From contig NZ_MJEJ02000046.1 in assembly GCF_002095435.2 (NCBI RefSeq), positions 1-64,000 on the forward strand: a DNA stretch of 64,000 nt. Direction: 5' to 3'. This document shows, piece after piece, positions 1 through 45,171 of this stretch. Under the pieces are notes generated by a model. That model ran no database searches. It was not told the origin of the DNA and saw nothing but the letters and a program-made list of their open reading frames with translations. How positions within the stretch are numbered: position 1 is the first letter of the stretch; every line of letters starts with the position of its first letter. The DNA is from Williamsia sp. 1138. GTDB lineage: Bacteria; Actinomycetota; Actinomycetes; Mycobacteriales; Mycobacteriaceae. Made by a program: the position numbers and the translations under genes.

Positions 1-39
1 CCTCAGTGTGACTCTTGTGTTGCCGCTCTGGCGGTGGTT

Positions 40-245
40 GGGTCCTGATCACCTGGTGTTTGGCTCTTGATGGGCCTACCGGCATCACCATCAAAGGGTG
101 AGGTCTGGTCTCCAAAAGTTGTGCCAACACCAGGTGTGATGGACCGACCGATGTGGCTTGATAGGAGCGTGGCACCGCCCCCAACTGAGGATTGCCCACC
201 GGCCGGCCCAACCGTCCCTGTCCCTGTTTCTGAATCAGGAGGCAA
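40..245 (+). ncRNA. Candidate bridge-RNA region of the IS110 element
   Basis: This non-coding leader holds an inverted repeat, 50-63 pairing with 124-136 (arms CACCTGGTGTTTGG and CCAACACCAGGTG). Enclosed by it is a smaller stem, 67-73 pairing with 88-94 (TTGATGG/CCATCAA). IS110-group elements are known to encode a structured bridge RNA upstream of the transposase that guides target and donor recognition. Position and fold fit that role, but the target- and donor-binding loops were not identified, so this is inference. Confidence 0.35.
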
Positions 246-250
246 CCACC

Positions 251-1306
251 ATGGTTGTTGTTGGAGTCGATGTACACAAGTCCACTCACACATTCGTCGC
301 CGTCGATTCCGTCGGCAAGAAGCTAGGCCACCTCACCTCTGCGGCCACCACCGAAGGGCACCACACAGCGATCAACTGGGCACTCACCGAGTTCGGTGGC
401 GATCTGGTGTGGGGTATCGAGGACTGCCGGCAGATGTCGACCCGCCTCGAGCGCGACCTGCTCGGCGCCGGCCAGACCGCGGTGCGCGTACCCACCAAGT
501 TGATGGCCCAAGCCCGCTCCAGCGCTCGCACCCGCGGCAAGTCAGATCCCATCGACGCCCTGGCCGTGGCGCGAGCGGTACTACGCGAACCGGACCTGCC
601 CGCCGCTGGCGCCGACCCCCAATCCCGCGAGTTACGGCTCCTCGTCGACTACCGGGAAGTCGCTGTCGCCCAACGCACTGCGTCAATCAACCGACTGCTG
701 TGGCGGGTCCATGAGATCAATCCCGCCTACGCTCCCAAACCCCGGTCGCTGAGCATGAACAAGCACCAAAAAATACTCGCCACCCATCTCGCGAACCACA
801 CCAGCCTCCTCGCCGACATCGCCCGCGCGGAACTCGACGACATCATCTCGCTGACAGCCCGGATCAACAAGCTCGCCACCGAGATCGGCAAGCGAGTACG
901 CCAACTGGTGCCGACCTTGCTCGAGTTGCCCGGCTGTGCCGAACTGACCGCCGGCAAAATCGTCGGCGAAACCGCCGGCATCTCCCGCTTCCGCTCCGCC
1001 GACGCCTACGCCAGCTACGCCGGCACAGCACCCATCCCCGTCTGGTCCGGCAACAGCGCCGGCCGCGTGCGACTACCCCGACACGGCAACCGACAGCTCA
1101 ATACCGCACTGCACCGCATCGCCCTGACCCAAATCCGCCTCGAAGACTCCGACGGCTACACCTACTACCGCAACCGCCTCGCCGCCAACGACACCAAAAC
1201 TTCAGCCCTACGGTGCCTGCGACGACGACTCATCCGCACCGTCTACCAACGACTCACCACCGACGCCCACACGCACCCCGCACCGACCGAACAAGCCGCC
1301 GCTTGA
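251..1306 (+). CDS. IS110-family transposase (DEDD recombinase)
   Basis: The 351-residue product is a full-length IS110-type recombinase. The N-terminal RuvC-like DEDD domain is visible: Asp7 in GVDVHK, Glu57 in WGIEDC, and Asp99 and Asp102 in KSDPIDALAVARA. The C-terminal Tnp20-like half carries LLELPGCAELTAGKI and an AYAGTAPIPVWSGNS segment, where the serine belongs to the composite active site known for the family. The ATG at 251 is chosen because AGGAGG lies at 237-242, eight bases upstream; a longer open frame from 158 has no such site. The start codon sits inside a small palindrome (CAACCACCATGGTTGTTG). No frameshift or internal stop is present, so the element may be active. It presumably acts in trans on DNA together with the leader RNA described at 40-245. 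Confidence 0.9.
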   Translation: MVVVGVDVHKSTHTFVAVDSVGKKLGHLTSAATTEGHHTAINWALTEFGGDLVWGIEDCRQMSTRLERDLLGAGQTAVRVPTKLMAQARSSARTRGKSDPIDALAVARAVLREPDLPAAGADPQSRELRLLVDYREVAVAQRTASINRLLWRVHEINPAYAPKPRSLSMNKHQKILATHLANHTSLLADIARAELDDIISLTARINKLATEIGKRVRQLVPTLLELPGCAELTAGKIVGETAGISRFRSADAYASYAGTAPIPVWSGNSAGRVRLPRHGNRQLNTALHRIALTQIRLEDSDGYTYYRNRLAANDTKTSALRCLRRRLIRTVYQRLTTDAHTHPAPTEQAAA

Positions 1307-1317
1307 CATAGGAGCAA

Positions 1318-1356
1318 CTTCTGGCGACCGCGACCTGCGGTTTTCCTCGCCAGAAG
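1318..1356 (+). terminator. Hairpin after the transposase gene
   Basis: A perfect 10-base inverted repeat, CTTCTGGCGA (1318-1327) and TCGCCAGAAG (1347-1356), begins 11 bases after the transposase stop. It lies before the ribosome-binding site of the racemase gene. A stem of this size could end transposase transcription or isolate the racemase from it. There is no long T tract, which is common for actinobacterial terminators. Confidence 0.5.
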
Positions 1357-1390
1357 GCCCCATTTTCGGTACCGATGGAAGGATGGACGC

Positions 1391-2125
1391 GTGCTACTAA
1401 GCGTGATCAACCCGAACACCACCGTCGCGATGACCGACCAGATCGCCGCTGCCGCGCGGTCGGTTGCGGCGCCGGGAACCGACATCGTCGGCGTCACCCC
1501 GACGATGGGTCCGGCATCCATCGAATCCCACTACGACGAGGCACTGGCGGTCCCGGGGCTACTCGAGGCGATCATCAGGAGCCAGCGCAGCGAAAACCCC
1601 GCCGACGGCCATCTCGTGGCGTGCTTCGGCGACCCGGGGTTGGATGCCGCTCGCGAAATCGCTACCGTCCCGGTGATCGGGATAGCCGAGGCGGCGATGC
1701 ACACCGCGTCCCTGCTCGGACGCGGATTCTCTGTGGTGACCACTTTGGGCCGCACGATCGGTCGCGCCGAGGAGTTGGTCGATCGCTACGGGATGGCCAA
1801 GCGGTGCCGCGGCGTTCACGCCTGCGAGATCCCGGTCCTCGAGCTGGAAACCAATCCGGACACCGCAGCGATCCTGATCGAGGCCTGCCGGACGGCCGCC
1901 GAAGAAGACGGCTCAGACGCCATCGTGCTCGGGTGCGCCGGAATGGCGGAGCTCGCACATCTCATCGGTCAGAAGATCGGCATCCCCGTCATCGACGGGG
2001 TGGCCGCCGGCACGCTGTTGTTGCAATCGCTCGTCACGATGCAGGTGACGCCCGCATCATCGGGCGAACTCGCGCCCCCACCGCCCAAGCGATACTCGGG
2101 GATCCTCGCGCAGTTCGGCGAGTAA
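1391..2125 (+). CDS. Asp/Glu/hydantoin racemase family protein
   Basis: The 244-residue product looks like a cofactor-independent racemase of the Asp/Glu/hydantoin racemase family. It begins with the typical N-terminal strand LLSVINPNTT and has the two catalytic cysteines expected for the two-base mechanism: Cys78 in VACFGDPG and Cys182 in VLGCAGMAE. Length fits the hydantoin racemase (HyuE) branch. The GTG at 1391 is preceded by GGAAGGA at about 1377-1383. No hydantoinase or carbamoylase gene is beside it, so the substrate is open. It ends 15 bases from the convergent small gene at 2141-2488. Its place at the edge of an NRPS locus with D-residues is suggestive, but epimerisation there is already covered by E domains. 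Confidence 0.85.
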   Translation: MLLSVINPNTTVAMTDQIAAAARSVAAPGTDIVGVTPTMGPASIESHYDEALAVPGLLEAIIRSQRSENPADGHLVACFGDPGLDAAREIATVPVIGIAEAAMHTASLLGRGFSVVTTLGRTIGRAEELVDRYGMAKRCRGVHACEIPVLELETNPDTAAILIEACRTAAEEDGSDAIVLGCAGMAELAHLIGQKIGIPVIDGVAAGTLLLQSLVTMQVTPASSGELAPPPPKRYSGILAQFGE

Positions 2126-2140
2126 TCCTTGGTCCGCCGG

Positions 2141-2488
2141 TCAGCCGACCTGCCTGCTCGGCTCCGTCTGGTCCCACCCGGTATCCCCGGTGATCTCACG
2201 CAGGATGTCCGCGACGCGATCGGCGACGCGGCCCGGGGTCTGGTCGGCCAGGCTCGGCAGAGTGCTCAACACTGCGGCGAAGACGGCCGCGTTCGCGTCC
2301 ATGCCGTTCGCGTCCATCACCGTTCGATACGCCTGGATCGTCGCGTGCAGACGCCCATACGTGACGAAGTCATCGCCGTACTCCGCCGCGACCCGAGCGG
2401 GGCGCGCGGCGGCCACCATCTCGATCACCGCGACCGCGGGAAGAGCGGATGGGGCGGGGCGCCCTGGCGCCGGGATCGTATCGCTCAC
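2141..2488 (-). CDS. Free-standing 'mini-A' protein (A-domain N-edge-like), copy 1
   Basis: This 115-residue protein has no recognised function. Its middle resembles the first stretch of an NRPS adenylation domain (VIEMVAAARPARVAAEYGDD, then FVTYGRLHA, matching core A1 TYxEL). It then follows a different consensus, GMDANAAVFAAVLSTLPSL, then a helix-like tail ending in VADILREITGD. The same consensus appears in two other small genes (41637-42065, 42625-42993) and twice inside the NRPS (modules 3 and 5). It lacks the ATP-binding core motifs A3 to A10, so adenylation is not expected. The start is GTG at 2488 with only a weak AAGG upstream. It is transcribed away from the lipase gene across a palindrome-rich interval. 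The function is unknown; a role in assisting the NRPS is inference. Confidence 0.7.
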   Translation of the reverse strand: MSDTIPAPGRPAPSALPAVAVIEMVAAARPARVAAEYGDDFVTYGRLHATIQAYRTVMDANGMDANAAVFAAVLSTLPSLADQTPGRVADRVADILREITGDTGWDQTEPSRQVG

Positions 2489-2585
2489 GGTGATCTACCT
2501 TCGGTGTCTGCTCAACGCTCGATTGCGCTGTTCTTTATTGGTGCTATGTGTACAGCACCTTCACAGGCCCTGTCTGCAGGAAAAC

Positions 2586-2663
2586 CATAAGAATTCTTAT
2601 GACCTGCATCACTGCAGGTCAGGGCGTTAGCCGAGGTAAATAACGGATCACAAATAAGTGATC
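2586..2663. promoter_or_regulatory. Cluster of three palindromes between divergent genes
   Basis: The 360-base gap between the divergent genes at 2488 and 2849 holds three dyads in a row. They are a 16-base perfect palindrome CATAAGAATTCTTATG at 2586-2601; a hairpin GACCTGCA/TGCAGGTC at 2601-2608 and 2613-2620; and GATCAC/GTGATC at 2646-2651 and 2658-2663. The interval is A+T-rich compared with its flanks. Operators for a dimeric regulator of both genes are the simplest reading; the regulator is not identified. Confidence 0.5.
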
Positions 2664-2848
2664 GTCACAGTCAGTTCTGCTTTGAGATTCAAGCATCTTA
2701 ACCATCCGCACTCCATGGAACGAGACCCAGAGGTTCAGAGGAGACACCAGCTCTTCATCCGATCGCTACTGCGCCGGAATCTGCTTATCGGCCGAGGTTG
2801 GGTACCGTCGACTGGTCGGAGAGACCGATAGACGACAGGGAGGTCCGC

Positions 2849-3775
2849 TTGCTGACCAGAGCCAGACGAAGAATTGCTTCACTGGGATTGCTCGTTGTCC
2901 TGTGTTTGGCAGCATCGTCAGTTCTTGCCGGTGGCACCCTTGCCGCACCGCCGGTCGACGAAACACCTCTGGGCGCGAACGACTGGACGTGCACTCCTGG
3001 TACACAGCATCCTCGCCCGGTGGTCCTCGTCCACGGAACATGGGCCGACATGGCCAAGACCTGGAACACGATGGCTCCCGCACTCAAGGAAGAAGGCTAC
3101 TGCGTCTTCGCACTGAATTACGGATCCAAGAAGCCGGGAAGTGGCCAGAATCTGCTGGACATGGTCGGCGGGGACACGATCGAAGACTCTGCCTCGACGC
3201 TGGCACAATTCGTCGACCGAGTCCGGAACTCGACCGGTGCCGGGCAGGTGGACCTCATCGGGCATTCGCAGGGTGCACTCGTTGCGCGCGAATACTTGAA
3301 GTCCGGCGGCGGTTCAGACCCCGGCGCCCCCTCGAACAACACAGTGCACACGCTCGTCAGCCTCGCCGGGACAAACCAGGGCACCAGTTTCAATCTGAAC
3401 CAACAGCTGGGTGCAATTGCCGAGATGCTGGGAATACCGGTGATCGGGCTCGCAGCCGCGACAGTCGGCCCGTCGTACGTGGAACAGATGACAGGGTCGC
3501 CTTTCCTGAAACAACTCAACGCCGGACCCGACACCCTCCCTGGAATCAAATACGTTGCGGTCGGCACGAAAGACGACTTGATGGTGACACCGCCTGAACA
3601 CTCATTCCTCGAGCCCGCGCAGGGTTCGGACATACAGAATATCTGGATCCAGGACGGCTGCGAGTCGGCACACGTCGACCACATGCAAGTAACCAGTCAT
3701 CCTCGGGCAATCTGGCTCACAAAGAAAGCACTGGACCCGGCGTACCAAGAATCTTCTCCCGGCCGGTGCACCTGA
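2849..3775 (+). CDS. Secreted lipase/esterase (alpha/beta hydrolase)
   Basis: The 308-residue precursor has a classical export signal: basic RARRR, a hydrophobic stretch LGLLVVLCLAASSVLA, and a likely cleavage near residue 33 (LAA-PPVD). The mature part carries the oxyanion segment VLVHGTWADMAKTW and the nucleophile elbow LIGHSQG with Ser140. Late Asp and His candidates are in VGTKDDLMVTP and SAHVDHMQVTSH. This fits the actinobacterial secreted lipase family (Lipase_2 type), which hydrolyses ester lipids outside the cell. TTG at 2849 is chosen as start because AGGGAGG lies at 2837-2843, five bases upstream; a more upstream TTG at 2798 lacks a site. It could act on the lipidic NRPS product or on host or medium lipids; nothing in the sequence decides this. 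Confidence 0.85.
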   Translation: MLTRARRRIASLGLLVVLCLAASSVLAGGTLAAPPVDETPLGANDWTCTPGTQHPRPVVLVHGTWADMAKTWNTMAPALKEEGYCVFALNYGSKKPGSGQNLLDMVGGDTIEDSASTLAQFVDRVRNSTGAGQVDLIGHSQGALVAREYLKSGGGSDPGAPSNNTVHTLVSLAGTNQGTSFNLNQQLGAIAEMLGIPVIGLAAATVGPSYVEQMTGSPFLKQLNAGPDTLPGIKYVAVGTKDDLMVTPPEHSFLEPAQGSDIQNIWIQDGCESAHVDHMQVTSHPRAIWLTKKALDPAYQESSPGRCT

Positions 3776-3784
3776 GTGTTCGGC

Positions 3785-4743
3785 TCAACCGTTCCAACGG
3801 CCCTGAAGATGAAACTTGCCCAACCTCAACAGCGATCGCGGTAGCCGCGGCCCGACGTCCAGCACCAGCCAGCGGTACTTGAGTAGCCTATGCTGCAGTG
3901 CATTGCGTGAGAGCACGTTCTCGAGCGCATCCTCGAGCTTGCGGTCGCGCATGCCGCCGCGGGTCCGCAACGCGCGTAAATTCTCCTCGACATACGGGTA
4001 GGCCGCTTCGCGTACATAGGTCCGGTGGATTCGCTCGGCCGACACCTCGTCGGGCAGAGTCTCGCACCGCTCTAATGCGTCGACGGCGTAAAGGTTGATC
4101 ATCGTCCGAATACACTTCTCGCAGTTCGCACGAGTTGTATTCGTCATCGGCGGCCAGACCGCATACATATAGATAACGCATTGCCAGATCGCTGTGCTTG
4201 ACTTCCTGCGCCTTGGCCACCCTGTTGACTTCGGTCCCGTCGTGCACGATGTCGAGAGAGCTCGGTCGCCACCGTTCGCTCGACCGACGAAATTCGCTCG
4301 TAAGGTCGCCTACGGGTCGGGCTGATGTCGACGCCGTGCACAAGAATCAGATGGGTGATCTTCGCGCTTCTTGAGCACGGTGTAGAACGCATCCAGCCCA
4401 CCGCTGAAGAAGCAACCCATGCCGCGGTCACCCTCACCGTGCGCCGGACTAGGGACCGCATGTCGCACAGCGGCGACATTCACAGCAACCATGTCCGGGT
4501 ACCAGGATCTCAGCAGATCCGCGGCCTCCTCGGCCCCGGCCAGGGCACCAGGGTCTACAACGCCGTCAAACGCTAGGGCATCGCCGATGGTCGCGGAGTA
4601 CCGTACTCCGCGGCAGGCAGGGGGTTGCCGTCGAGTCCAGGCGAAGGCGCCGTCGTGCGTATCCGGGAACCCCTGCCGTCGAGGACGATCCGGTCTTCCA
4701 CTGTGTTTTCGTCGACAGGATTGACCTGTACTTCGATAGCCAT
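3785..4743 (-). pseudogene. Degenerate PP-loop ATPase gene (inverted relative of 5142-6341)
   Basis: Pieces of a protein homologous to the intact gene at 5142-6341 are spread over several minus-strand frames. The N-terminus begins at ATG 4743 (MAIEVQVNPVDENTVEDR). A frame change near 4575 leads to ALAFDGVVDPGALAGAEEAA and GCFFSGGLDAFYTVLKK. Another change gives ITHLILVHGVDISPT. Roughly 90 residues are then missing before SLDIVHDGTEVNRVAKAQEV. A last shift leads to the C-terminal part ANCEKCIRTMINL, which runs intact to the stop at 3785. At least three frameshifts and one internal deletion make a functional product unlikely, and the PP-loop itself reads SGGLDA rather than SGGVDS. It ends nine bases from the convergent lipase gene. 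Confidence 0.85.
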
Positions 4744-5141
4744 CTCGCGACCCCTCGACAATTGACCAACCCGGGCATTTCAGCTGGTCGAATCACGCGA
4801 AAGGTGAGTCGTCCCTGCTCGGCAACACCGACGCCGCCGACATTCACGGATATAAACGCACCTGTGGTCCATCGACATCGAAACAGAATAACCAGCGGAA
4901 CAAATTGCACTAAACAATCAAGACCACGGAGCAATGACGACCCCAGGACCAGCACCGATACGCGGACGTATAAAGTGGTGGCTGACGAATTCCAAGCCTA
5001 CAGGAGTGAACTTCACTCGAAAGCATGGCAACTCGCTTCATAAGTGGCTTGAGATGCGTTACATTCAGAACATCCGCCTCCACCCCAACGCTGCTTCTAT
5101 AAGAATTAGCAGGTCAGAGCATCGACGCGAAGTGAGCTTTA
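4744..5141. other. Intergenic stretch between the divergent PP-loop gene copies
   Basis: About 400 bases without a supportable gene separate the pseudogene start from the intact gene start. Composition is A+T-richer than the surroundings toward 5040-5110. The interval presumably carries the promoter of the intact gene. I could not place a convincing -10/-35 pair or operator, and the frames open here look like chance frames. Confidence 0.5.
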
Positions 5142-6341
5142 ATGTCCATCGAACAGAGCCTCGAAAGCAATCAACTGATCGAGGCGATCGTCGCGCCAGG
5201 TAACTACCGCAGCACCGCGACCGTGAACATCGACGGAGGACAGTTCGTGGCGTGGACCGAGACGAGCATCCCGAACGATCCGAGTGCAACGCCGTGGTTG
5301 CCACCCCTGACCGTAACGGCGATGACGCAAGGCCACGCGCTGAGTTTCAACCAGCCCGTTGACTCAGCCGCGTACGCCGGAAGCCTTGCAGCACAAGAGA
5401 AACTCTTGGAGTGGTACCCCGATCGGCTGCACAACTCAGAAGTCAAGACCACTGACACCAAGGTTGCCGAGGGGGCCCCGGGGCGTGGAGTCGGCTGCTT
5501 CTTCTCCGGCGGGGTGGACTCCTTCTACACGGCGCTCAAGCACCTCGACTCGATAACCCACTTCATCGTGATCCACGGCCTGGATATATCGCTGACCAAT
5601 GAGCCGCTGTGGCATGAGACTGTCGGACACATCCGCATGATTGCAAGTGCCCTCGGCAAAGAACTTATCGAAGTCAAATCAAATGTCCGTGTACTCCACG
5701 CAAAGTTCGGTCCACACTGGCAAGATCAAGCTCATGGGGCGTTCTTGGCGCATGTGGGCCTGTTACTCTCTCCGCACCTCAAAGCCGTTTACATACCGGC
5801 ATCCGACGACAAGTCGCGGTTGAAGCCATTGGGGACGCATCCTGATCTGGATCCTCTGTGGTCGAGCGACGAAGTCAGCCTGATCCACGACGGTGTCGAA
5901 GCAAGCAGAGTGGAGAAACTCGAGTACCTGAAGTCTTCCGACGTTGCGATGAAGCACTTGCGTGTGTGCTGGTCAAACTTGTCGGGCATGTACAACTGCG
6001 GCAAGTGTGAAAAATGCGTCAGAACCATGATCGGTTTGCATATTGTGCGCGCCTCCGACCGCTGCGCCACCCTGCCGTCGAAAATCTCGCCCAGGGCGGT
6101 GCAGTCGATGTATCTCCGCGCCGGCGGGTCCGGCGGGGAACTGATGGCCGAAGAGAACATGCGTGCACTGGCAGCCAGGAGCCAGACCGACTCCCCCCTC
6201 TACAGGGCACTGGACCGTTCACTCCACCGTGGGCGCTTGGCCAACCTCGCCATCAAACTCAAGTTCTACGCGATCGACGTGGGTTTCGGCTTGATCAGGT
6301 ACCGGATCCGCCAACGCAGCACCACGTCGATGTCCAACTAG
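5142..6341 (+). CDS. PP-loop superfamily ATP pyrophosphatase-like protein
   Basis: The 399-residue product contains a PP-loop, GCFFSGGVDSFYTALK, with the SGGxDS signature at residues 122-127. Such loops bind ATP in N-type ATP pyrophosphatases (QueC, asparagine synthetase, GMP synthetase). A cysteine cluster follows: Cys276, then Cys286, Cys289 and Cys292 in YNCGKCEKCVRTM, which could bind zinc as in QueC. The N-terminal 110 residues are not a familiar domain, and no queuosine genes surround it, so a QueC assignment is not justified. It may activate a carboxylate or modify a small molecule, but the substrate is unknown. An inverted, broken relative lies directly upstream (3785-4743). The ATG at 5142 has no strong ribosome-binding site. 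Confidence 0.7.
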   Translation: MSIEQSLESNQLIEAIVAPGNYRSTATVNIDGGQFVAWTETSIPNDPSATPWLPPLTVTAMTQGHALSFNQPVDSAAYAGSLAAQEKLLEWYPDRLHNSEVKTTDTKVAEGAPGRGVGCFFSGGVDSFYTALKHLDSITHFIVIHGLDISLTNEPLWHETVGHIRMIASALGKELIEVKSNVRVLHAKFGPHWQDQAHGAFLAHVGLLLSPHLKAVYIPASDDKSRLKPLGTHPDLDPLWSSDEVSLIHDGVEASRVEKLEYLKSSDVAMKHLRVCWSNLSGMYNCGKCEKCVRTMIGLHIVRASDRCATLPSKISPRAVQSMYLRAGGSGGELMAEENMRALAARSQTDSPLYRALDRSLHRGRLANLAIKLKFYAIDVGFGLIRYRIRQRSTTSMSN

Positions 6342-6449
6342 GGGCCTTGATCTTTTCGCAAGATCCACGCACTCCCCGTTGTGAGGATGTGGCTACCCTG
6401 TACGCATAGGGGACTCTCATCTCGAGCGTGACTGGAACGTGGGGTAAGC

Positions 6450-7290
6450 GTGGTTTTTACAGGTGAATCGGCCTCAATCTCGATCGATGGGCGCAATCTG
6501 CACTACTGCCGGGCCGGACAGGGCCCAACGGTTGTTTTCGAAGCCGGACTTGGCAAGTCCCGCAATACATGGGCCTGGGTGCAACCAGCTGTGTCTTCCT
6601 TCGCCTCGACCGTCGTGTACGACCGGGCCGGCTACGGGCGAAGCGATCCCGCGCCGCAGGATGGCGGCCGGCCGTTGGAAGCTCTGCTCGATGACCACCA
6701 ACGGCTCATCTCCGAGGTGGTAACCGGCCCGTACATCCTGGTCGCGCACAGCTACGGCGGACCCATCGTCCGCCAGGCGGCAATGAGTGACCCCGCAAAT
6801 TGCCGCGGGGTCGTTCTGGTGGACGAGGTCTCCGAGATGTGCGAGGAGATCGTCAGCGGCCAAGCCATGCGCGGTGCAAATGCTCTGTATACGGCGCAGA
6901 TACCTCTTGCTCGCCTCGGACTCCTGTCCCGGCTGCTGACGCGGACGTATTACAAAGGCCTCCGGTCGCCGGCTTTGGCGGAGATCACCGACGAGGAAGG
7001 GACCCTGAAGCACGCGCAGGGCGCAAAGGCGGAATGGCGGGCCATGCTAGGCAGCCTGGCCCGCGCACGCGACACGGGGCCGTGGGTACCACAGTGCGCC
7101 CTGACGACCATCTCATCGAACCGGTCCGCGCGGCACCCGGAGGGCGGCGACTTCATCTTCGACTCCCATGCCTCGACCGCAGCCATGGTGCCCGACGGAC
7201 GCCATGTCACCGCTGCGACGAGGAGTCACTACATTCAGCTCACCGAGCCCGATTTCGTGGTCGCGGAGATCAGGCGAATGGTCGATCAGC

Positions 7291-7298
<8 letters not shown>
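6450..7298 (+). CDS. Alpha/beta hydrolase, convergent with the NRPS gene
   Basis: The 282-residue cytosolic protein is a typical alpha/beta hydrolase. It has an oxyanion region VVFEAGLGKSRNTWAW, the strand-4 segment VVYDRAGYGRSDP, the nucleophile elbow VAHSYGG with Ser101, and a late histidine in RSHYIQLTEPD. No signal peptide is seen. Start is GTG at 6450 after GGGG at 6441-6444. Its last eight bases overlap the last eight of the NRPS gene, which runs toward it (7291-7298). Because the NRPS ends without a thioesterase, this enzyme is a candidate for product release in trans, but it could equally be an unrelated esterase or haloalkane-dehalogenase-like protein. Confidence 0.75.
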
Positions 7299-41157
<33,859 letters not shown>

Positions 41158-41298
41158 TCTCGAACGACTGCTCGGCTCGGCCTCAAATCACGACGTTTGC
41201 GTGCTCCAGCAAATGTATCGCCCAAAGTCTTCATCGATTACATTCTGCCGAGCAACGGGTCAGTCCAACAGTAACCACGCAAGCGGGTCGCGGTTAAC

Positions 41299-41354
41299 AG
41301 ACACGCGATATGGCGTGTCTATCTGTGACCTATCGACCAGGCTGTCACACGTGT
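41299..41354. promoter_or_regulatory. Palindromes in the NRPS upstream region
   Basis: The 479-base interval between the NRPS start and the small gene at 41637 contains a perfect dyad AGACACGC/GCGTGTCT (41299-41306 and 41313-41320). It also contains TGTGAC/GTCACA (41324-41329 and 41344-41349) and an overlapping ACACGTGT palindrome (41347-41354). Toward 41410-41480 the DNA is A+T-rich and may hold a promoter of its own for the NRPS gene. Operators are inferred from symmetry only. Confidence 0.4.
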
Positions 41355-41577
41355 TACAGGAGTTCAAAGCGGCCCCGGACCGATTCCGACAGCACTGCTG
41401 CAAGCTGCACTAAGTTTAAGTTTCCTATGCTAAATACACATCACAAGAGCCAATGCCGAGCGACAAAGTTACCAAAAACACCTGTCGTGCATTTGAATGA
41501 ATCTCACACTGGGTTCAATACAGACAGATAGAACACACAGGCAGGCCGCGTTCGCACCGAGACTTCTCGACTTACGA

Positions 41578-41627
41578 GACTGCTCAACCTGCGGACTGCG
41601 CGGACTGCGCGGCCTGCAAGACTGCTC
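41578..41627. repeat. Short direct-repeat cluster downstream of the small gene
   Basis: CGGACTGCG occurs twice in tandem (41592-41600 and 41601-41609), followed by the related GGCCTGC. The block is flanked by two copies of GACTGCTC (41578-41585 and 41620-41627). It lies just past the stop codon of the gene at 41637-42065. It may be slippage-generated; no function is evident. Confidence 0.5.
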
Positions 41628-41636
41628 GACGAGGAC

Positions 41637-42065
41637 TTAAGCGCTCGACAACCTGCTCGCGATGACGCGGAGGTCCATCTCACTCGTCCGATTCGCACGC
41701 ACGGGCTGACGCGGGGGCTCAGTGGCCATGTCCAGCGCATTCAGGTCGGCGCCGATCCGGGCAAGGGCGGCATCGACGACCGAGGCGACAATCGCCGAAT
41801 CGGGTTCCGAGCCGAGGTTGGGTATGCCGGCGAAGATCGCAGCGACCACGGCAGAGCGGTCATCCATGTTCTGACTCCGCGTGACAGGCATCATGAGGTT
41901 GATGGCGGCCAGCAGATCGCGATAGTTGAGCCCTCGGGCGCGGTACCGGACCACGACTCGATCCGGGGTCACACGGGTGAGTCGTGACACTGCTTCCGGC
42001 AGCTGAGCCAGGGGCACGGCGAACTCCGCGGCGACCTCGTCGTTCCGGACTGTGGAAATAGCCAT
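41637..42065 (-). CDS. Free-standing 'mini-A' protein, copy 2 (NRPS operon)
   Basis: This 142-residue protein lies between mbtH and the NRPS gene on the same strand. It opens with AAEFAVPLAQLPEAVSRLTR, then has the A-domain-edge-like VVVRYRARGLNYRDLLAAI. It continues with the shared motif NMDDRSAVVAAIFAGIPNLG and a helical stretch SAIVASVVDAALARIGADL. A charged tail (about residues 115-142) is not shared with the other copies. It lacks ATP-binding motifs. The ATG at 42065 is chosen because the family-like sequence begins there, with GGTGAG a few bases upstream; the longer open frame to 42251 looks non-coding. A role linked to the NRPS or to MbtH is inferred from position and similarity only. 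Confidence 0.68.
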   Translation of the reverse strand: MAISTVRNDEVAAEFAVPLAQLPEAVSRLTRVTPDRVVVRYRARGLNYRDLLAAINLMMPVTRSQNMDDRSAVVAAIFAGIPNLGSEPDSAIVASVVDAALARIGADLNALDMATEPPRQPVRANRTSEMDLRVIASRLSSA

Positions 42066-42307
42066 CTGCTCACCAACCTGTGCGTGTACCCCGACTCCAA
42101 TTGAGCCAGCGTAGCTATATTCACAGTACCCGAACGAGAAGGGAAGAGAGAACGGCCAAGCCGTTACATGATCGAAGTGTGATCCATACCACACTTTACG
42201 ATTGCAACGCTCTGACCTGCGAGAACAGGGAAGACTCACAACCGACTGCAACGCGTCAGGTGGCGCGCCGGCGTCAAACAGTAATGATCTTGACGATCAA
42301 CTGTAAC

Positions 42308-42529
42308 TTACTTCGCCGAATCGGCTTCCATCGCGTCGATGAGGCTCTGCGGCCGCAGGTCGGTCCAGTGCTCATTCACGTAGTCGAGGCACTCCGAGCG
42401 AGACGCTTCGCCGAAGACCTTGTTCCAGCCGGCGGGAATGTCGGCGAACGTCGGCCACAGCGAGTGCTGGTTCTCGTCGTTGACCAGCACAAAGAAACGG
42501 CCGTCTTCGTCATCGAATGGGTTGCTCAT
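42308..42529 (-). CDS. MbtH-like protein
   Basis: The 73-residue protein matches the MbtH family over its whole length. It has [20 protein letters not shown], then [20 protein letters not shown] and [18 protein letters not shown], including the invariant tryptophans and the final SL. MbtH-like proteins bind the N-terminal subdomain of A domains and make them soluble and active. Here the partner should be the nine-module NRPS downstream on the same strand. An AGGAGG site lies seven to eight bases before the ATG at 42529. The gene is bracketed by two mini-A genes (42625-42993 upstream, 41637-42065 downstream), an arrangement I do not recall from described NRPS operons. Confidence 0.95.
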
Positions 42530-42624
42530 GGCGGACCCTCCTGTCGTGTCTCGCTTCGCGCAGCCACGACGGGCCTGTGGCGATATTGCTGATGCTCAGC
42601 GCACTGAGCCCAGACAACCGCAGG

Positions 42625-42993
42625 TCAGACCTGTTGTGGTTCTGCGAGAACCATCATTGCTTGAATGCGTATCGCCGTAAGCGTATCCGCGAGCCCCTTC
42701 GGGCCCGCAACCGCCAGTCCCGGCACCGCTGTCATCAGCGCGACGGTCAGCGCGGAATCATCGATCCCGGACTCACTGGCCATCGCGATCGCGGCGCTCT
42801 GCGCGCGCGCTTTCAATTCGCCGAAGCTCACGGCGTAGTCGTTGTCGCGGCTGATCACTGCGGGCTTGTCCCGGGCAGCGTCAGCCGCCGCGATCACGAG
42901 CTGCGTGAGGGTGCGATTGCCCCGGTCGCGAAATCCACGTTCGTCGGGTCGGGCCGACGGCCCCTTGCCAATATGGCGGAGCTGCAGTACCAC
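42625..42993 (-). CDS. Free-standing 'mini-A' protein, copy 3 (operon head)
   Basis: About 122 residues long, this is the first gene of the minus-strand run toward mbtH and the NRPS. It carries TLTQLVIAAADAARDKPAVI, then AVSFGELKARA, which resembles the opening of an A domain through core A1. The family motif GIDDSALTVALMTAVPGLAV and a GPKGLADTLTAIRIQAMMVL tail follow. No nucleotide-binding motifs are present. GTG at 42993 is preferred because GGGAGGG lies just upstream; an ATG at 43074 has no comparable site and would add an unconserved 27-residue leader. The N-terminal VVLQLRHIGKGPSARPDERG is specific to this copy. Function is unknown. Confidence 0.65.
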   Translation of the reverse strand: MVLQLRHIGKGPSARPDERGFRDRGNRTLTQLVIAAADAARDKPAVISRDNDYAVSFGELKARAQSAAIAMASESGIDDSALTVALMTAVPGLAVAGPKGLADTLTAIRIQAMMVLAEPQQV

Positions 42994-43375: not shown

Positions 43376-44359
43376 ATGACAGCGCCTGCCGCTACCACCG
43401 GCTCGCACAGCGTGATAGCCGAGAACTTGGTCAAGAAGTTCGGGGACTTCACTGCGGTCGACAACATCAGCTTCAGCGTGCCTACTGGGACTGTCCTCGG
43501 CCTGTTGGGGCCGAACGGCGCCGGCAAGACCACCACGGTCAACATGCTCGCGACGCTCCTCACCCCAGACGGCGGCACAGCGAGCATCGCGGGCTTCGAC
43601 GTGATCAAGGATCGCGCTGCGGTACGGAAGTCGATCATGCTCACTGGTCAGTTCGCCGCGTTGGACGAATCTCTCACCGGTAGAGAGAACCTGATCCTGT
43701 TCGGCCGGCTTATGGGACTGCGGAAGGTTCCTGCCGCACATCGAGCGGACGAATTGCTCGAGGCCTTCGACCTGGTCGAGGCGGCATCGCGCCGCGTCGG
43801 AAAGTTCTCCGGCGGAATGCGCCGACGAATCGACATCGCGTGCGGGCTCGTGGTGCGACCCGAGGTGGTCTTCCTTGATGAACCGACCACCGGACTCGAC
43901 CCACGAAGCAGGCAGGATGTCTGGAACATCATCTCCTCTCTGCGCGATCTCGGCATCACAACCCTGCTGACGACCCAGTACCTGGAGGAAGCCGACCTTC
44001 TCAGCGACCGTATCGTGGTGATCGACAAGGGCAAGGTCATTGCCGAGGGAACTGCCGACCAGCTCAAAGAACAGGTCAGCGGAACCTTCTGCGAAGTGGT
44101 GCCCAGCTACCCGGACGATCTGCACCGCATCGAGAAGCTGCTCGCGGACATGGTGCCGGCTGATCGAATCCGTATCGATGTGTCGCGAACCTCGCTGACA
44201 TTGCCTGCAGTGAACTCGACGCAGACTCTGGTCGAGATCGTTCGAAGGATCGACGCCGCAGGCATCAAGCTCACCGATGTCGGCCTGCGACGTCCCTCGC
44301 TCGACGACGTCTTCCTCAAGTTGACCGAGAGCACCGAAGTACCTGAGGCACGCACGTGA
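43376..44359 (+). CDS. drrA: DrrA-type ABC exporter ATP-binding protein
   Basis: The 327-residue ATPase has Walker A GPNGAGKTT (residues 45-53), the ABC signature FSGGMRRRIDIA, Walker B VVFLDEPTTGLDP and the D-loop/H-loop region ITTLLTTQYLEEAD. Its C-terminal about 90 residues match the extension typical of the daunorubicin-resistance (DrrA) group. It should power export by the two membrane proteins that follow, with which it is translationally coupled (GTGA overlap at 44356-44359). Position divergent from the NRPS operon makes the peptide the likely cargo, and self-resistance a possible role. The ATG at 43376 has no obvious Shine-Dalgarno site. Confidence 0.93.
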   Translation: MTAPAATTGSHSVIAENLVKKFGDFTAVDNISFSVPTGTVLGLLGPNGAGKTTTVNMLATLLTPDGGTASIAGFDVIKDRAAVRKSIMLTGQFAALDESLTGRENLILFGRLMGLRKVPAAHRADELLEAFDLVEAASRRVGKFSGGMRRRIDIACGLVVRPEVVFLDEPTTGLDPRSRQDVWNIISSLRDLGITTLLTTQYLEEADLLSDRIVVIDKGKVIAEGTADQLKEQVSGTFCEVVPSYPDDLHRIEKLLADMVPADRIRIDVSRTSLTLPAVNSTQTLVEIVRRIDAAGIKLTDVGLRRPSLDDVFLKLTESTEVPEART

Positions 44360-45171
44360 CGACCATGACGCCGGCTTTGGTCGTCTCCTCGGGTGCCACC
44401 GAGGCCATAGTCGCACCGACCCGTCAGTGGCTTGCCCTGACCAACCGGTCGCTGCGGGGGATGGCGCGGGAGGGCCAGTTCTTCCTGTGCATCGTGTCGC
44501 CTGTTCTGCTGACGGTCTGTTTCTACATCCCGCTGCGAACAATCATGAACAACTACCCGGGTATGAACTACGCGCAGTTCCTCATGCCTGTGATCTGTCT
44601 TCAGTCGGTCGGCTTCGTCGCCACGTCTGCGGCTATGCGCGCCGCGACCGACGGAAGCCTTGGGTTGACCAACCGATTGCGCAGCATGCCCGTCAATCCG
44701 CTGGTGCCACCCCTCGCCCGGCTGGGGGCCAACATGGTCCTCCTGGTCATATCGCTGACGTGGGCACTTATTTCCGGGTTGGTCATCGGATGGCGGCCTG
44801 ACTCAGGCCCGCTGAACTTCGCCGGTTTCATCGCAGTCGCGCTGCTGATCGGTGTGATCCTGGCGTTCGGTGCCGATATCATCGGTGCGCTCTCCCACAA
44901 CCCGCAGGCGACGAGCCAGGCGCTTGCACTTCCGCAGCTGATCCTGGGCATGCTGTCCACCGGTTTCGTACCGGAGGAGCGGTTCCCAGAGTGGATCCGG
45001 CCGTTCGCCCGTAACCAGCCAATCTCACAATTCACCGATTTAATGCGAGGATTCGACAACGGCAACGCGACTCTCCAGGTGGCGTTTCCTTCGATTTGTT
45101 GGGCGATCGGAATCGTGCTTGCGGCACTCGCCGGCGGTACGTGGGTGATGATGCGGAGCAGCCGGCGGTGA
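44356..45171 (+). CDS. drrB: DrrB-type ABC-2 transporter permease
   Basis: The 271-residue integral membrane protein has about six hydrophobic segments: FFLCIVSPVLLTVCFYI, QFLMPVICLQSVGFVA, MVLLVISLTWALISGLVIG, FIAVALLIGVILAFGADII, LILGMLSTGFVPEE and CWAIGIVLAALAGGTWV. The motif ERFPEWIRPFARNQPISQF is typical of ABC-2 drug permeases (DrrB family). GTG at 44356 overlaps the drrA stop, and its own stop overlaps the start of the next gene (GTGA at 45168-45171). Together the three genes form one exporter unit in the cytoplasmic membrane. Confidence 0.9.
   Translation: MTTMTPALVVSSGATEAIVAPTRQWLALTNRSLRGMAREGQFFLCIVSPVLLTVCFYIPLRTIMNNYPGMNYAQFLMPVICLQSVGFVATSAAMRAATDGSLGLTNRLRSMPVNPLVPPLARLGANMVLLVISLTWALISGLVIGWRPDSGPLNFAGFIAVALLIGVILAFGADIIGALSHNPQATSQALALPQLILGMLSTGFVPEERFPEWIRPFARNQPISQFTDLMRGFDNGNATLQVAFPSICWAIGIVLAALAGGTWVMMRSSRR

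What the first reader, a model, noticed from the sequence alone, without database searches (positions are those of the whole stretch)
2141..42993. A family of 'mini-A' sequences, three free-standing and two embedded in the NRPS
Five segments share one pattern: genes 2141-2488, 41637-42065 and 42625-42993, and NRPS residues about 3077-3173 and 5360-5458. Each has an A-domain-like opening up to core A1 (V[ST]YgxL), then G[MIV]d..A...v...t.lP.l and a helical tail. Motif examples are GMDANAAVFAAVLSTLPSL, GMDADAIASVVLTGLVPTI and GIDDSALTVALMTAVPGLA. None has ATP-binding cores A3-A10, and in the two embedded cases a full A domain follows, so they are extra domains, not broken A domains. I know of no description of such a family; a structural, docking or MbtH-related role is inference.
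Basis: partly seen in the sequence, partly recalled or inferred. Interest (0 to 1): 0.85.

Follow-up and report, generated by a model that had tools for sequence, protein, structure and literature searches.

The report
Mini-A domains: probable NRPS docking pairs
Short pieces related to the start of an adenylation domain form a real, conserved protein family in Williamsia, Rhodococcus and their relatives, and in many genomes they sit as matched pairs on the two chain ends that meet inside a giant peptide-making enzyme, which suggests that they are a new kind of docking domain.

Summary
All five segments lie on the minus strand and belong to one ~90-residue family: the first 50-60 residues of an adenylation (A) domain (alpha-beta-beta-alpha), then two helices of its own. 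It is a clade apart from A domains, was found only in the window's taxonomic family in my (capped) samples, and E1 and E2 are more conserved than both neighbouring catalytic domains in 11 of 14 comparisons, so they are not debris. The new result comes from relatives: in 30 distinct genomes an NRPS is split between the C and A domains of one module, the upstream chain ends in a mini-A and the downstream chain starts with one. The two kinds match by class in 28 of 28 loci on the tree. The window's free copies belong to these lineages (F2 to the C-terminal kind, F1 and F3 to the N-terminal kind); F2-MbtH-F1 is a conserved gene order. I read the family as an A-domain-derived docking domain for a C|A split. 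For embedded and free copies this is extrapolation. Binding is not shown: an AlphaFold2 pair model placed the two domains without confidence (pTM 0.42). Seven paper searches found no description.

The parts
42625..42993 (-). F2, free mini-A gene, C-terminal-kind lineage; first of the F2-MbtH-F1 run (the open frame reaches 43074)
42308..42529 (-). MbtH-like protein gene lying between F2 and F1
   Evidence: PF03621 6.7e-30; order conserved in 10 of 11 loci examined that hold F1 and F2
41637..42065 (-). F1, free mini-A gene, N-terminal-kind lineage
7291..41157 (-). NRPS of nine modules, 11,288 aa as listed from a TTG start; epimerization-type domains after modules 1 and 8 by motif, and at the end by reading the sequence
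31633..31938 (-). E1, mini-A embedded between C and A of module 3 (residues 3074-3175)
24784..25083 (-). E2, mini-A embedded between C and A of module 5 (residues 5359-5458)
2141..2488 (-). F3, free mini-A gene beyond the 3' end of the NRPS, N-terminal-kind lineage

Best explanation
Mini-A is a ~90-residue non-catalytic domain derived from the N-terminal alpha-beta-beta-alpha unit of an A domain plus two new helices. Its best-supported job is docking. Where an NRPS is split between the C and A domains of one module, a mini-A of the C-terminal kind ends the upstream chain and one of the N-terminal kind starts the downstream chain; the two pair and so rebuild the C-A-T module. SHOWN: the family, its position, the pairing by class, purifying selection, and a predicted fold. 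INFERRED: physical binding. EXTRAPOLATED: in the window the unsplit NRPS carries two copies (modules 3 and 5) that pair with each other or with the free copies, and F2 and F1 are a free pair of the two kinds, probably expressed with MbtH.
For: C-kind copies lie 328-340 aa after the C-domain HHxxxDG and 1-26 aa before the stop in 28 of 28 rows; N-kind copies lie 151-173 aa before core A3 and 8-67 aa from the frame start in 29 of 29. In the 11 named pairs the partners are separate genes with a stop, a spacer and an ATG. Three C classes meet only the matching N class, 28 of 28 loci on the tree. F2 groups with C class III (SH-aLRT 99), F1+F3 with N class III plus L090 (96). E1/E2 exceed both flanking domains in protein identity in 11 of 14 comparisons, e.g. 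E2 0.92 against 0.80 and 0.39, dN/dS 0.04. All 27 named loci found through E2 also hold E1.
Against: No binding was shown. The AlphaFold2 model of a tethered pair folded each mini-A but placed them without confidence (pTM 0.42, mean pLDDT 65, the other four models 49-53; 10-row alignment). Class matching may reflect shared descent of a locus, not recognition. L078 and L090 have an N-kind copy with no C-kind copy in the stretch fetched, L156 a C-kind copy alone. Embedded and free copies occur without each other: no free copy near the E1/E2 NRPS in nine genomes (eight with both flanks fetched, G131 with one), and F1/F2 without E1/E2 in G001, whose NRPS runs off the contig end. E1 is diverged or replaced in Williamsia sp. 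1135, W. herbipolensis and CHRR-6 while E2 stayed, which speaks against tight E1-E2 co-evolution. The free copies evolve faster than the MbtH beside them (identity 0.46-0.98 against 0.86-1.00). By hhalign F1 is nearer to A domains (4.9e-7) than E2's profile is to F1 (5.4e-6).
Confidence: 0.62

Rival explanations
1. Mini-A is a spacer or adaptor that reshapes the C-A platform of one module in cis. At split modules a copy remained on each side, and the copies need not touch.
For: The single embedded copy sits between C and A at a near-constant place. The pair model shows no confident placement.
Against: Does not explain free-standing genes, nor two distinct kinds matched by class at the junctions.
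Confidence: 0.2
2. Free mini-As are partners of MbtH, for example a co-chaperone or a decoy A-lobe, and the embedded copies recruit MbtH or the free proteins.
For: F2-MbtH-F1 gene order in 10 of 11 loci examined that hold F1 and F2, three GTDB genera; in two of three g9 genomes read, MbtH directly neighbours a free mini-A, three cases, one of them weak at 36 bits.
Against: The stretches fetched beside the E1/E2 NRPS of nine genomes hold no free mini-A, and an MbtH match in one of them only; the third g9 genome, G016, shows neither in the stretch read. L089 has F2 and F1 without MbtH in 4 kb. The MbtH contact of A domains lies, as I recall, in a later part of the A core, which mini-A lacks. Shared operons are common.
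Confidence: 0.12
3. Remnants of A domains left by recombination, without function.
For: The first 50-60 residues are clearly A-domain derived. G001 shows that a decayed A fragment can end a subunit.
Against: Purifying selection, identity mostly above that of neighbouring catalytic domains, one clade with its own tail, constant position.
Confidence: 0.04

Closest known systems
N-terminal lobe of NRPS adenylation domains (AMP-binding, PF00501; e.g. SlgN1 4GR4, TycA 5N81)
   Same: Sequence and predicted fold of the first 50-60 residues: 48-51 residues at 1.3-2.0 A in the compact hits, 25-37% identity; hhalign prob 98.3.
   Different: No cores A3-A10; the next beta-alpha of the A domain is replaced by two helices; E1 and E2 stay below Pfam's cut-off; separate clade, SH-aLRT 100.
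Beta-hairpin docking (bhD) domains, TubC_N PF18563
   Same: Similar string of elements (alpha-beta-beta-alpha-alpha, PMC9113145 section 15) and a place at an NRPS subunit end.
   Different: No sequence relation (hhalign prob 0.1). The presumed partner is a homologous domain, not a short linear motif; C|A split, not PCP/C or PCP/Cy. The 50 of 227 fold matches that were shown are A domains or other adenylating enzymes.
COM domains and PAX three-helix docking domains (PMC9113145 sections 11-13)
   Same: Complementary elements on the two ends of abutting NRPS subunits.
   Different: Those are short helices or a helix-hand, characterised at E/C or PCP/C junctions; mini-A is a ~90-residue domain at a C|A split.
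MbtH-like proteins
   Same: Small accessory genes in the same gene run.
   Different: Unrelated sequence; mini-A is A-domain derived.

Membership tests
NRPS docking domain (general kind) | Sits at the very ends of subunits that must interact | tested here: met
   28/28 C-kind and 29/29 N-kind rows; E and F copies do not sit there
NRPS docking domain (general kind) | Occurs as complementary pairs at the same junction | tested here: met
   30 distinct genomes; exceptions L078, L090, L156
NRPS docking domain (general kind) | The partners bind one another | tested here: inconclusive
   AlphaFold2 tethered pair: domains folded, placement not confident, pTM 0.42; needs experiment
NRPS docking domain (general kind) | Needed for transfer of the chain between subunits | not testable with these tools
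   -
Adenylation domain (PF00501) | Cores A3-A10 for ATP and substrate binding | tested here: not met
   Homology ends near profile positions 60-71; segments of ~95-115 aa
bhD / TubC_N docking domain (PF18563) | Sequence family | tested here: not met
   Not among Pfam matches; hhalign prob 0.1 against nine TubC_N sequences
[quoted passage not shown]
   E2 model alpha-beta-beta-alpha-alpha-alpha, pLDDT 84.7; no direct superposition on a bhD structure
MbtH-like protein (PF03621) | MbtH sequence family | tested here: not met
   Not among the matches of the mini-As; the neighbour 42308-42529 does match

The most novel reading that the evidence does not exclude
Mini-A is a portable pairing domain that bacteria made from the front of an A domain. 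In Williamsia, five copies, two embedded in modules 3 and 5 and three free (one C-kind, two N-kind, two of the three around MbtH), form a scaffold acting in trans that folds or holds a single-chain nine-module NRPS; in relatives the same parts join split chains at the C|A boundary.
Probability: 0.3. Interest if true: 0.82.

Novelty: new variant of a known kind. Interest (0 to 1): 0.7.

Why it matters
In the 2021 review that I read, the structurally characterised NRPS docking classes join subunits at PCP/C, PCP/Cy or E/C borders; its list of further predicted bhD and PAX partners names many domains but no A domain (PMC9113145, sections 11 and 15). A pair that works at a split between C and A would show that one module can be cut there and rebuilt, and would give engineers a native connector next to the A domain, which they often want to swap. 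It also warns that an NRPS gene ending in C plus mini-A is not complete, so a product predicted from that gene alone may be too short. That a docking domain can grow from a fragment of a catalytic domain of the same machine is of evolutionary interest.

Tried and rejected
Decayed A domains: judged unlikely for E1 and E2 from conservation. bhD membership: no sequence relation (in one search the TubC_N segments were badly cut and that part was discarded). The rule 'each embedded copy pairs with a free copy': rejected, because E1/E2 and F1/F2 each occur without the other. Alignment A3 as a scan query was unusable; A4 replaced it. Glycopeptidolipid Mps1/Mps2: one paper on phages in the listing, not pursued. 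Structure library pdb_via not available. Pair model: several alignments put N-kind or C-kind rows on the wrong half; 884 row sets were tried off-line, 3 aligned properly, and one of these (A10, 9 rows beside the query) was used. This was a choice by correct alignment, not by result.

Rows dropped or relabelled before counts: two weak ordinary A-domain rows (L156, L157) left out of the tree, one L009 row renamed from F3 to F2 and L156 from F3 to C; the row named E1_L100 is the N-kind copy of G054; E1_L088 is a lone embedded copy of genus g17. A12 holds 59 rows chosen from 76 distinct named rows plus the five of the window; L151 rows were left out.

Papers: seven searches. Read: PMC9113145 outline and sections 11 (with 12 and 13) and 15; PMC5550956 passages and section 8. 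All others seen in listings only.
Full report
WHAT IS THERE. The window lies in a 6.08-Mb genome of genus g1. The minus strand reads F2, MbtH, F1, an NRPS of nine modules and 11,288 aa with E1 in module 3 and E2 in module 5, and F3 beyond its 3' end. Pfam has no family for the free copies, and only sub-threshold AMP-binding hits for E1 and E2. Of 59 family members scanned, 35 match AMP-binding at E up to 0.1, three match PAS_8, and the other seven families listed have one member each.

ONE FAMILY. A profile of the five (A1) finds the five in the own genome and the same set in relatives; the ordinary A domains in the printed rows stop at position 71 of 105. Full length alone is not a perfect sign: three ordinary A domains gave 17-35 bits over most of the profile, and the weakest copies that I count have 36-42 bits. 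The seven subtypes (C, N, E1, E2, F1, F2, F3) match each other by hhalign with prob 86-100 over 68-100 columns, and A-domain starts with prob 65-98 over 49-86 columns. One link, E2 to F1 (prob 86), is weaker than F1 to A domains (92). On a tree of 148 mini-As and the 9 A-domain starts of the window, mini-As form one side of a branch with SH-aLRT 100. The tree has 97 columns for 157 rows, so inner forks are weak and long branches may attract. Supports used here: F2+C-III 99, F1+F3 99, F1+F3+N-III+L090 96, N-I 99, C-I 95, C-II 99, N-II 100, N-III 96. F3 alone has 85 and F1 alone 35; F2, C-III and E2 alone are not clades.

FOLD. AlphaFold2 for window E2 with 59 family sequences: mean pLDDT 84.7, pTM 0.71, alpha(6-16) beta(21-25) beta(28-31) alpha(32-47) alpha(53-64) alpha(77-93). 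Foldseek against the PDB: 227 matches with E up to 10, none under 0.001 (best 0.071). The 50 shown are A domains, chains that hold one, or other adenylating enzymes, with 48-51 residues aligned at 1.3-2.0 A in the compact ones and probabilities mostly 0.8-1.0. So the first half is an A-domain start; the last two helices replace the next beta-alpha of the A domain. Only E2 and one C/N pair were modelled; that the free copies share the fold rests on sequence.

DISTRIBUTION. Genus: 9 of 9 genomes have members, 8 of 9 the set of five, G001 only F1 and F2. Family: 150 of 251 genomes in 21 of 31 genera at E <= 1e-9. That count is too high, because an ordinary A domain of G001 reached 4.5e-12 with the same profile. 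By my hand count of the printed rows, which was cut, matches that run past profile position 84 lie in at least 60 genomes of 13 genera. Order: 20 of 397; phylum: 5 of 396, at 1e-12, all in the window's family. Only 12 candidates per genome were scored in those two searches, so absence elsewhere is likely but not proven. Named hosts: Williamsia, Rhodococcus, Rhodococcoides, Prescottella, Tomitella.

THE KEY RESULT. In relatives mini-As come as pairs on abutting chain ends. Of 20 loci that I chose, 16 have one mini-A at the C-terminus of an upstream NRPS and one at the N-terminus of the next; two have an N-kind copy alone, one an embedded copy, one two free copies. Of 39 named loci, 27 have E1 and E2 embedded in one long frame, and 12 have a C-kind copy, 11 of them with the N-kind partner. 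The scan query was built on E2 and two C-kind sequences, so E2 in the 27 is by selection; that E1 is there too in 27 of 27 is the informative part. Three more pairs are and two: 30 distinct genomes after removing two seen twice. The C-kind copy follows a C domain (HHxxxDG 328-340 aa before) and ends 1-26 aa before the stop, 28 of 28 rows; the N-kind copy precedes an A domain (A3 151-173 aa later) and begins 8-67 aa into the open frame, 29 of 29. So one module is split between C and A, with a mini-A on either side and little else at the ends. In the 11 named pairs the genes are separate: stop, spacer, ATG.

TWO KINDS, THREE CLASSES. Class I meets class I in 21 of 21 loci, II meets II in 3 of 3, III meets III in 4 of 4. 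The free copies fall in class III: F2 with C-III, F1 and F3 with N-III. In two g9 genomes read over their clusters (G079, G094) the C-III/N-III pair is on the NRPS ends and further free mini-As lie beside MbtH, three cases; a third, G016, has the pair but neither a free copy nor MbtH in the stretch read. In Williamsia and its kin the order F2-MbtH-F1 holds in 10 of 11 loci; L089 has F2-F1 without MbtH in 4 kb. These relations tie the window's free genes to the docking pairs.

SELECTION. Between the window and seven named loci, E1 and E2 exceed both flanking domains in protein identity in 11 of 14 comparisons; the exceptions are E1 of L131 and L144, and E2 of L131, which lies below its C flank. 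dN/dS is 0.04-0.35 in the 13 computable cases. F1 0.03-0.38, F2 0.05-0.28, F3 0.12-0.39; MbtH beside them 0-0.11, so the free copies are held less tightly than MbtH. Against W. soli the A domain beside E2 has 39% identity while E2 has 92%. Many dS values exceed 1 and are saturated, so the ratios are rough; the ranking by identity does not depend on them.

WHAT IT DOES. A place on both ends of chains that must rebuild one module is the usual ground on which docking domains are proposed (general knowledge). Homologous but distinct C and N kinds suggest a heterodimer that grew from a homodimer (inference). For E1 and E2 I prefer pairing with each other; pairing with F2, F1 or F3 is possible in Williamsia. 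Against: E1 is divergent or replaced in three Williamsia lineages (L128, L138, L145) while E2 is unchanged, and F1/F2 persist in G001 without embedded copies. The tethered-pair model gave each mini-A its fold (10-residue blocks: C-kind 64-88, N-kind 46-86) but no confident placement (mean pLDDT 65, pTM 0.42). Its failure is weak evidence, because the alignment was shallow and unpaired.

KNOWN OR NEW. A review of the structurally characterised NRPS and PKS docking domains lists COM, PAX and bhD for NRPSs, at E/C, PCP/C and PCP/Cy borders, and mentions further predicted partners, none an A domain (PMC9113145, sections 11 and 15). A Rhodococcus cluster survey contains neither 'docking' nor 'truncated' in its main text (PMC5550956; section 8 read). 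A search for truncated, partial or degenerate A domains returned eight papers, none on bacterial subunit ends by title. The library holds open-licence papers only, so print elsewhere is not excluded. bhD shares the order of elements, but not sequence. I file mini-A as a new variant of a known kind, with binding still to be shown.

Noticed in passing
L031/L032 (G001:C1:11221-19935 and 1-11094): An NRPS split at C|A whose upstream chain ends not in a mini-A but in a ~270-aa decayed A-domain N-lobe; the downstream chain starts with a full A domain. A possible intermediate in the making of C|A docking.
   Followed up: partly
window 24784-25083 and downstream; L126: The A domain beside E2 is only 39% identical to that of W. 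soli while E2 is 92% and the C flank 80%: the A domain seems to have been exchanged next to a fixed mini-A.
   Followed up: partly
L128:3206-3502, L138:3170-3478, L145:3053-3334: E1 is strongly diverged or replaced in three Williamsia lineages while E2 of the same enzyme is conserved.
   Followed up: partly
L177-L179 (G094:C18) and L174 (G079:C1): Free mini-A genes sit beside MbtH genes in another genus (g9), twice in one cluster, one of them a weak match.
   Followed up: partly
window 7291 and upstream on the minus strand (3' end of the NRPS): The NRPS ends in what reads as an epimerization-type domain, and I saw no thioesterase after it; an alpha/beta hydrolase gene (6450-7298, plus strand) lies beside it, and a DrrA/B-like ABC exporter at 43376-45171.
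   Followed up: no
window 158-1306: IS110-type transposase gene near F3, at the left edge of the window.
   Followed up: no
L129 (NZ_JNYV01000004.1): A record titled Kitasatospora arboriphila carries a Williamsia-like cluster and has the contig length of G006 of the window's genus; the record looks mislabelled.
   Followed up: no
L078:1660-1971, L090:1752-2066: NRPS chains that start with an N-kind mini-A but have no C-kind partner within the fetched stretch; the partner may be elsewhere in the genome.
   Followed up: no
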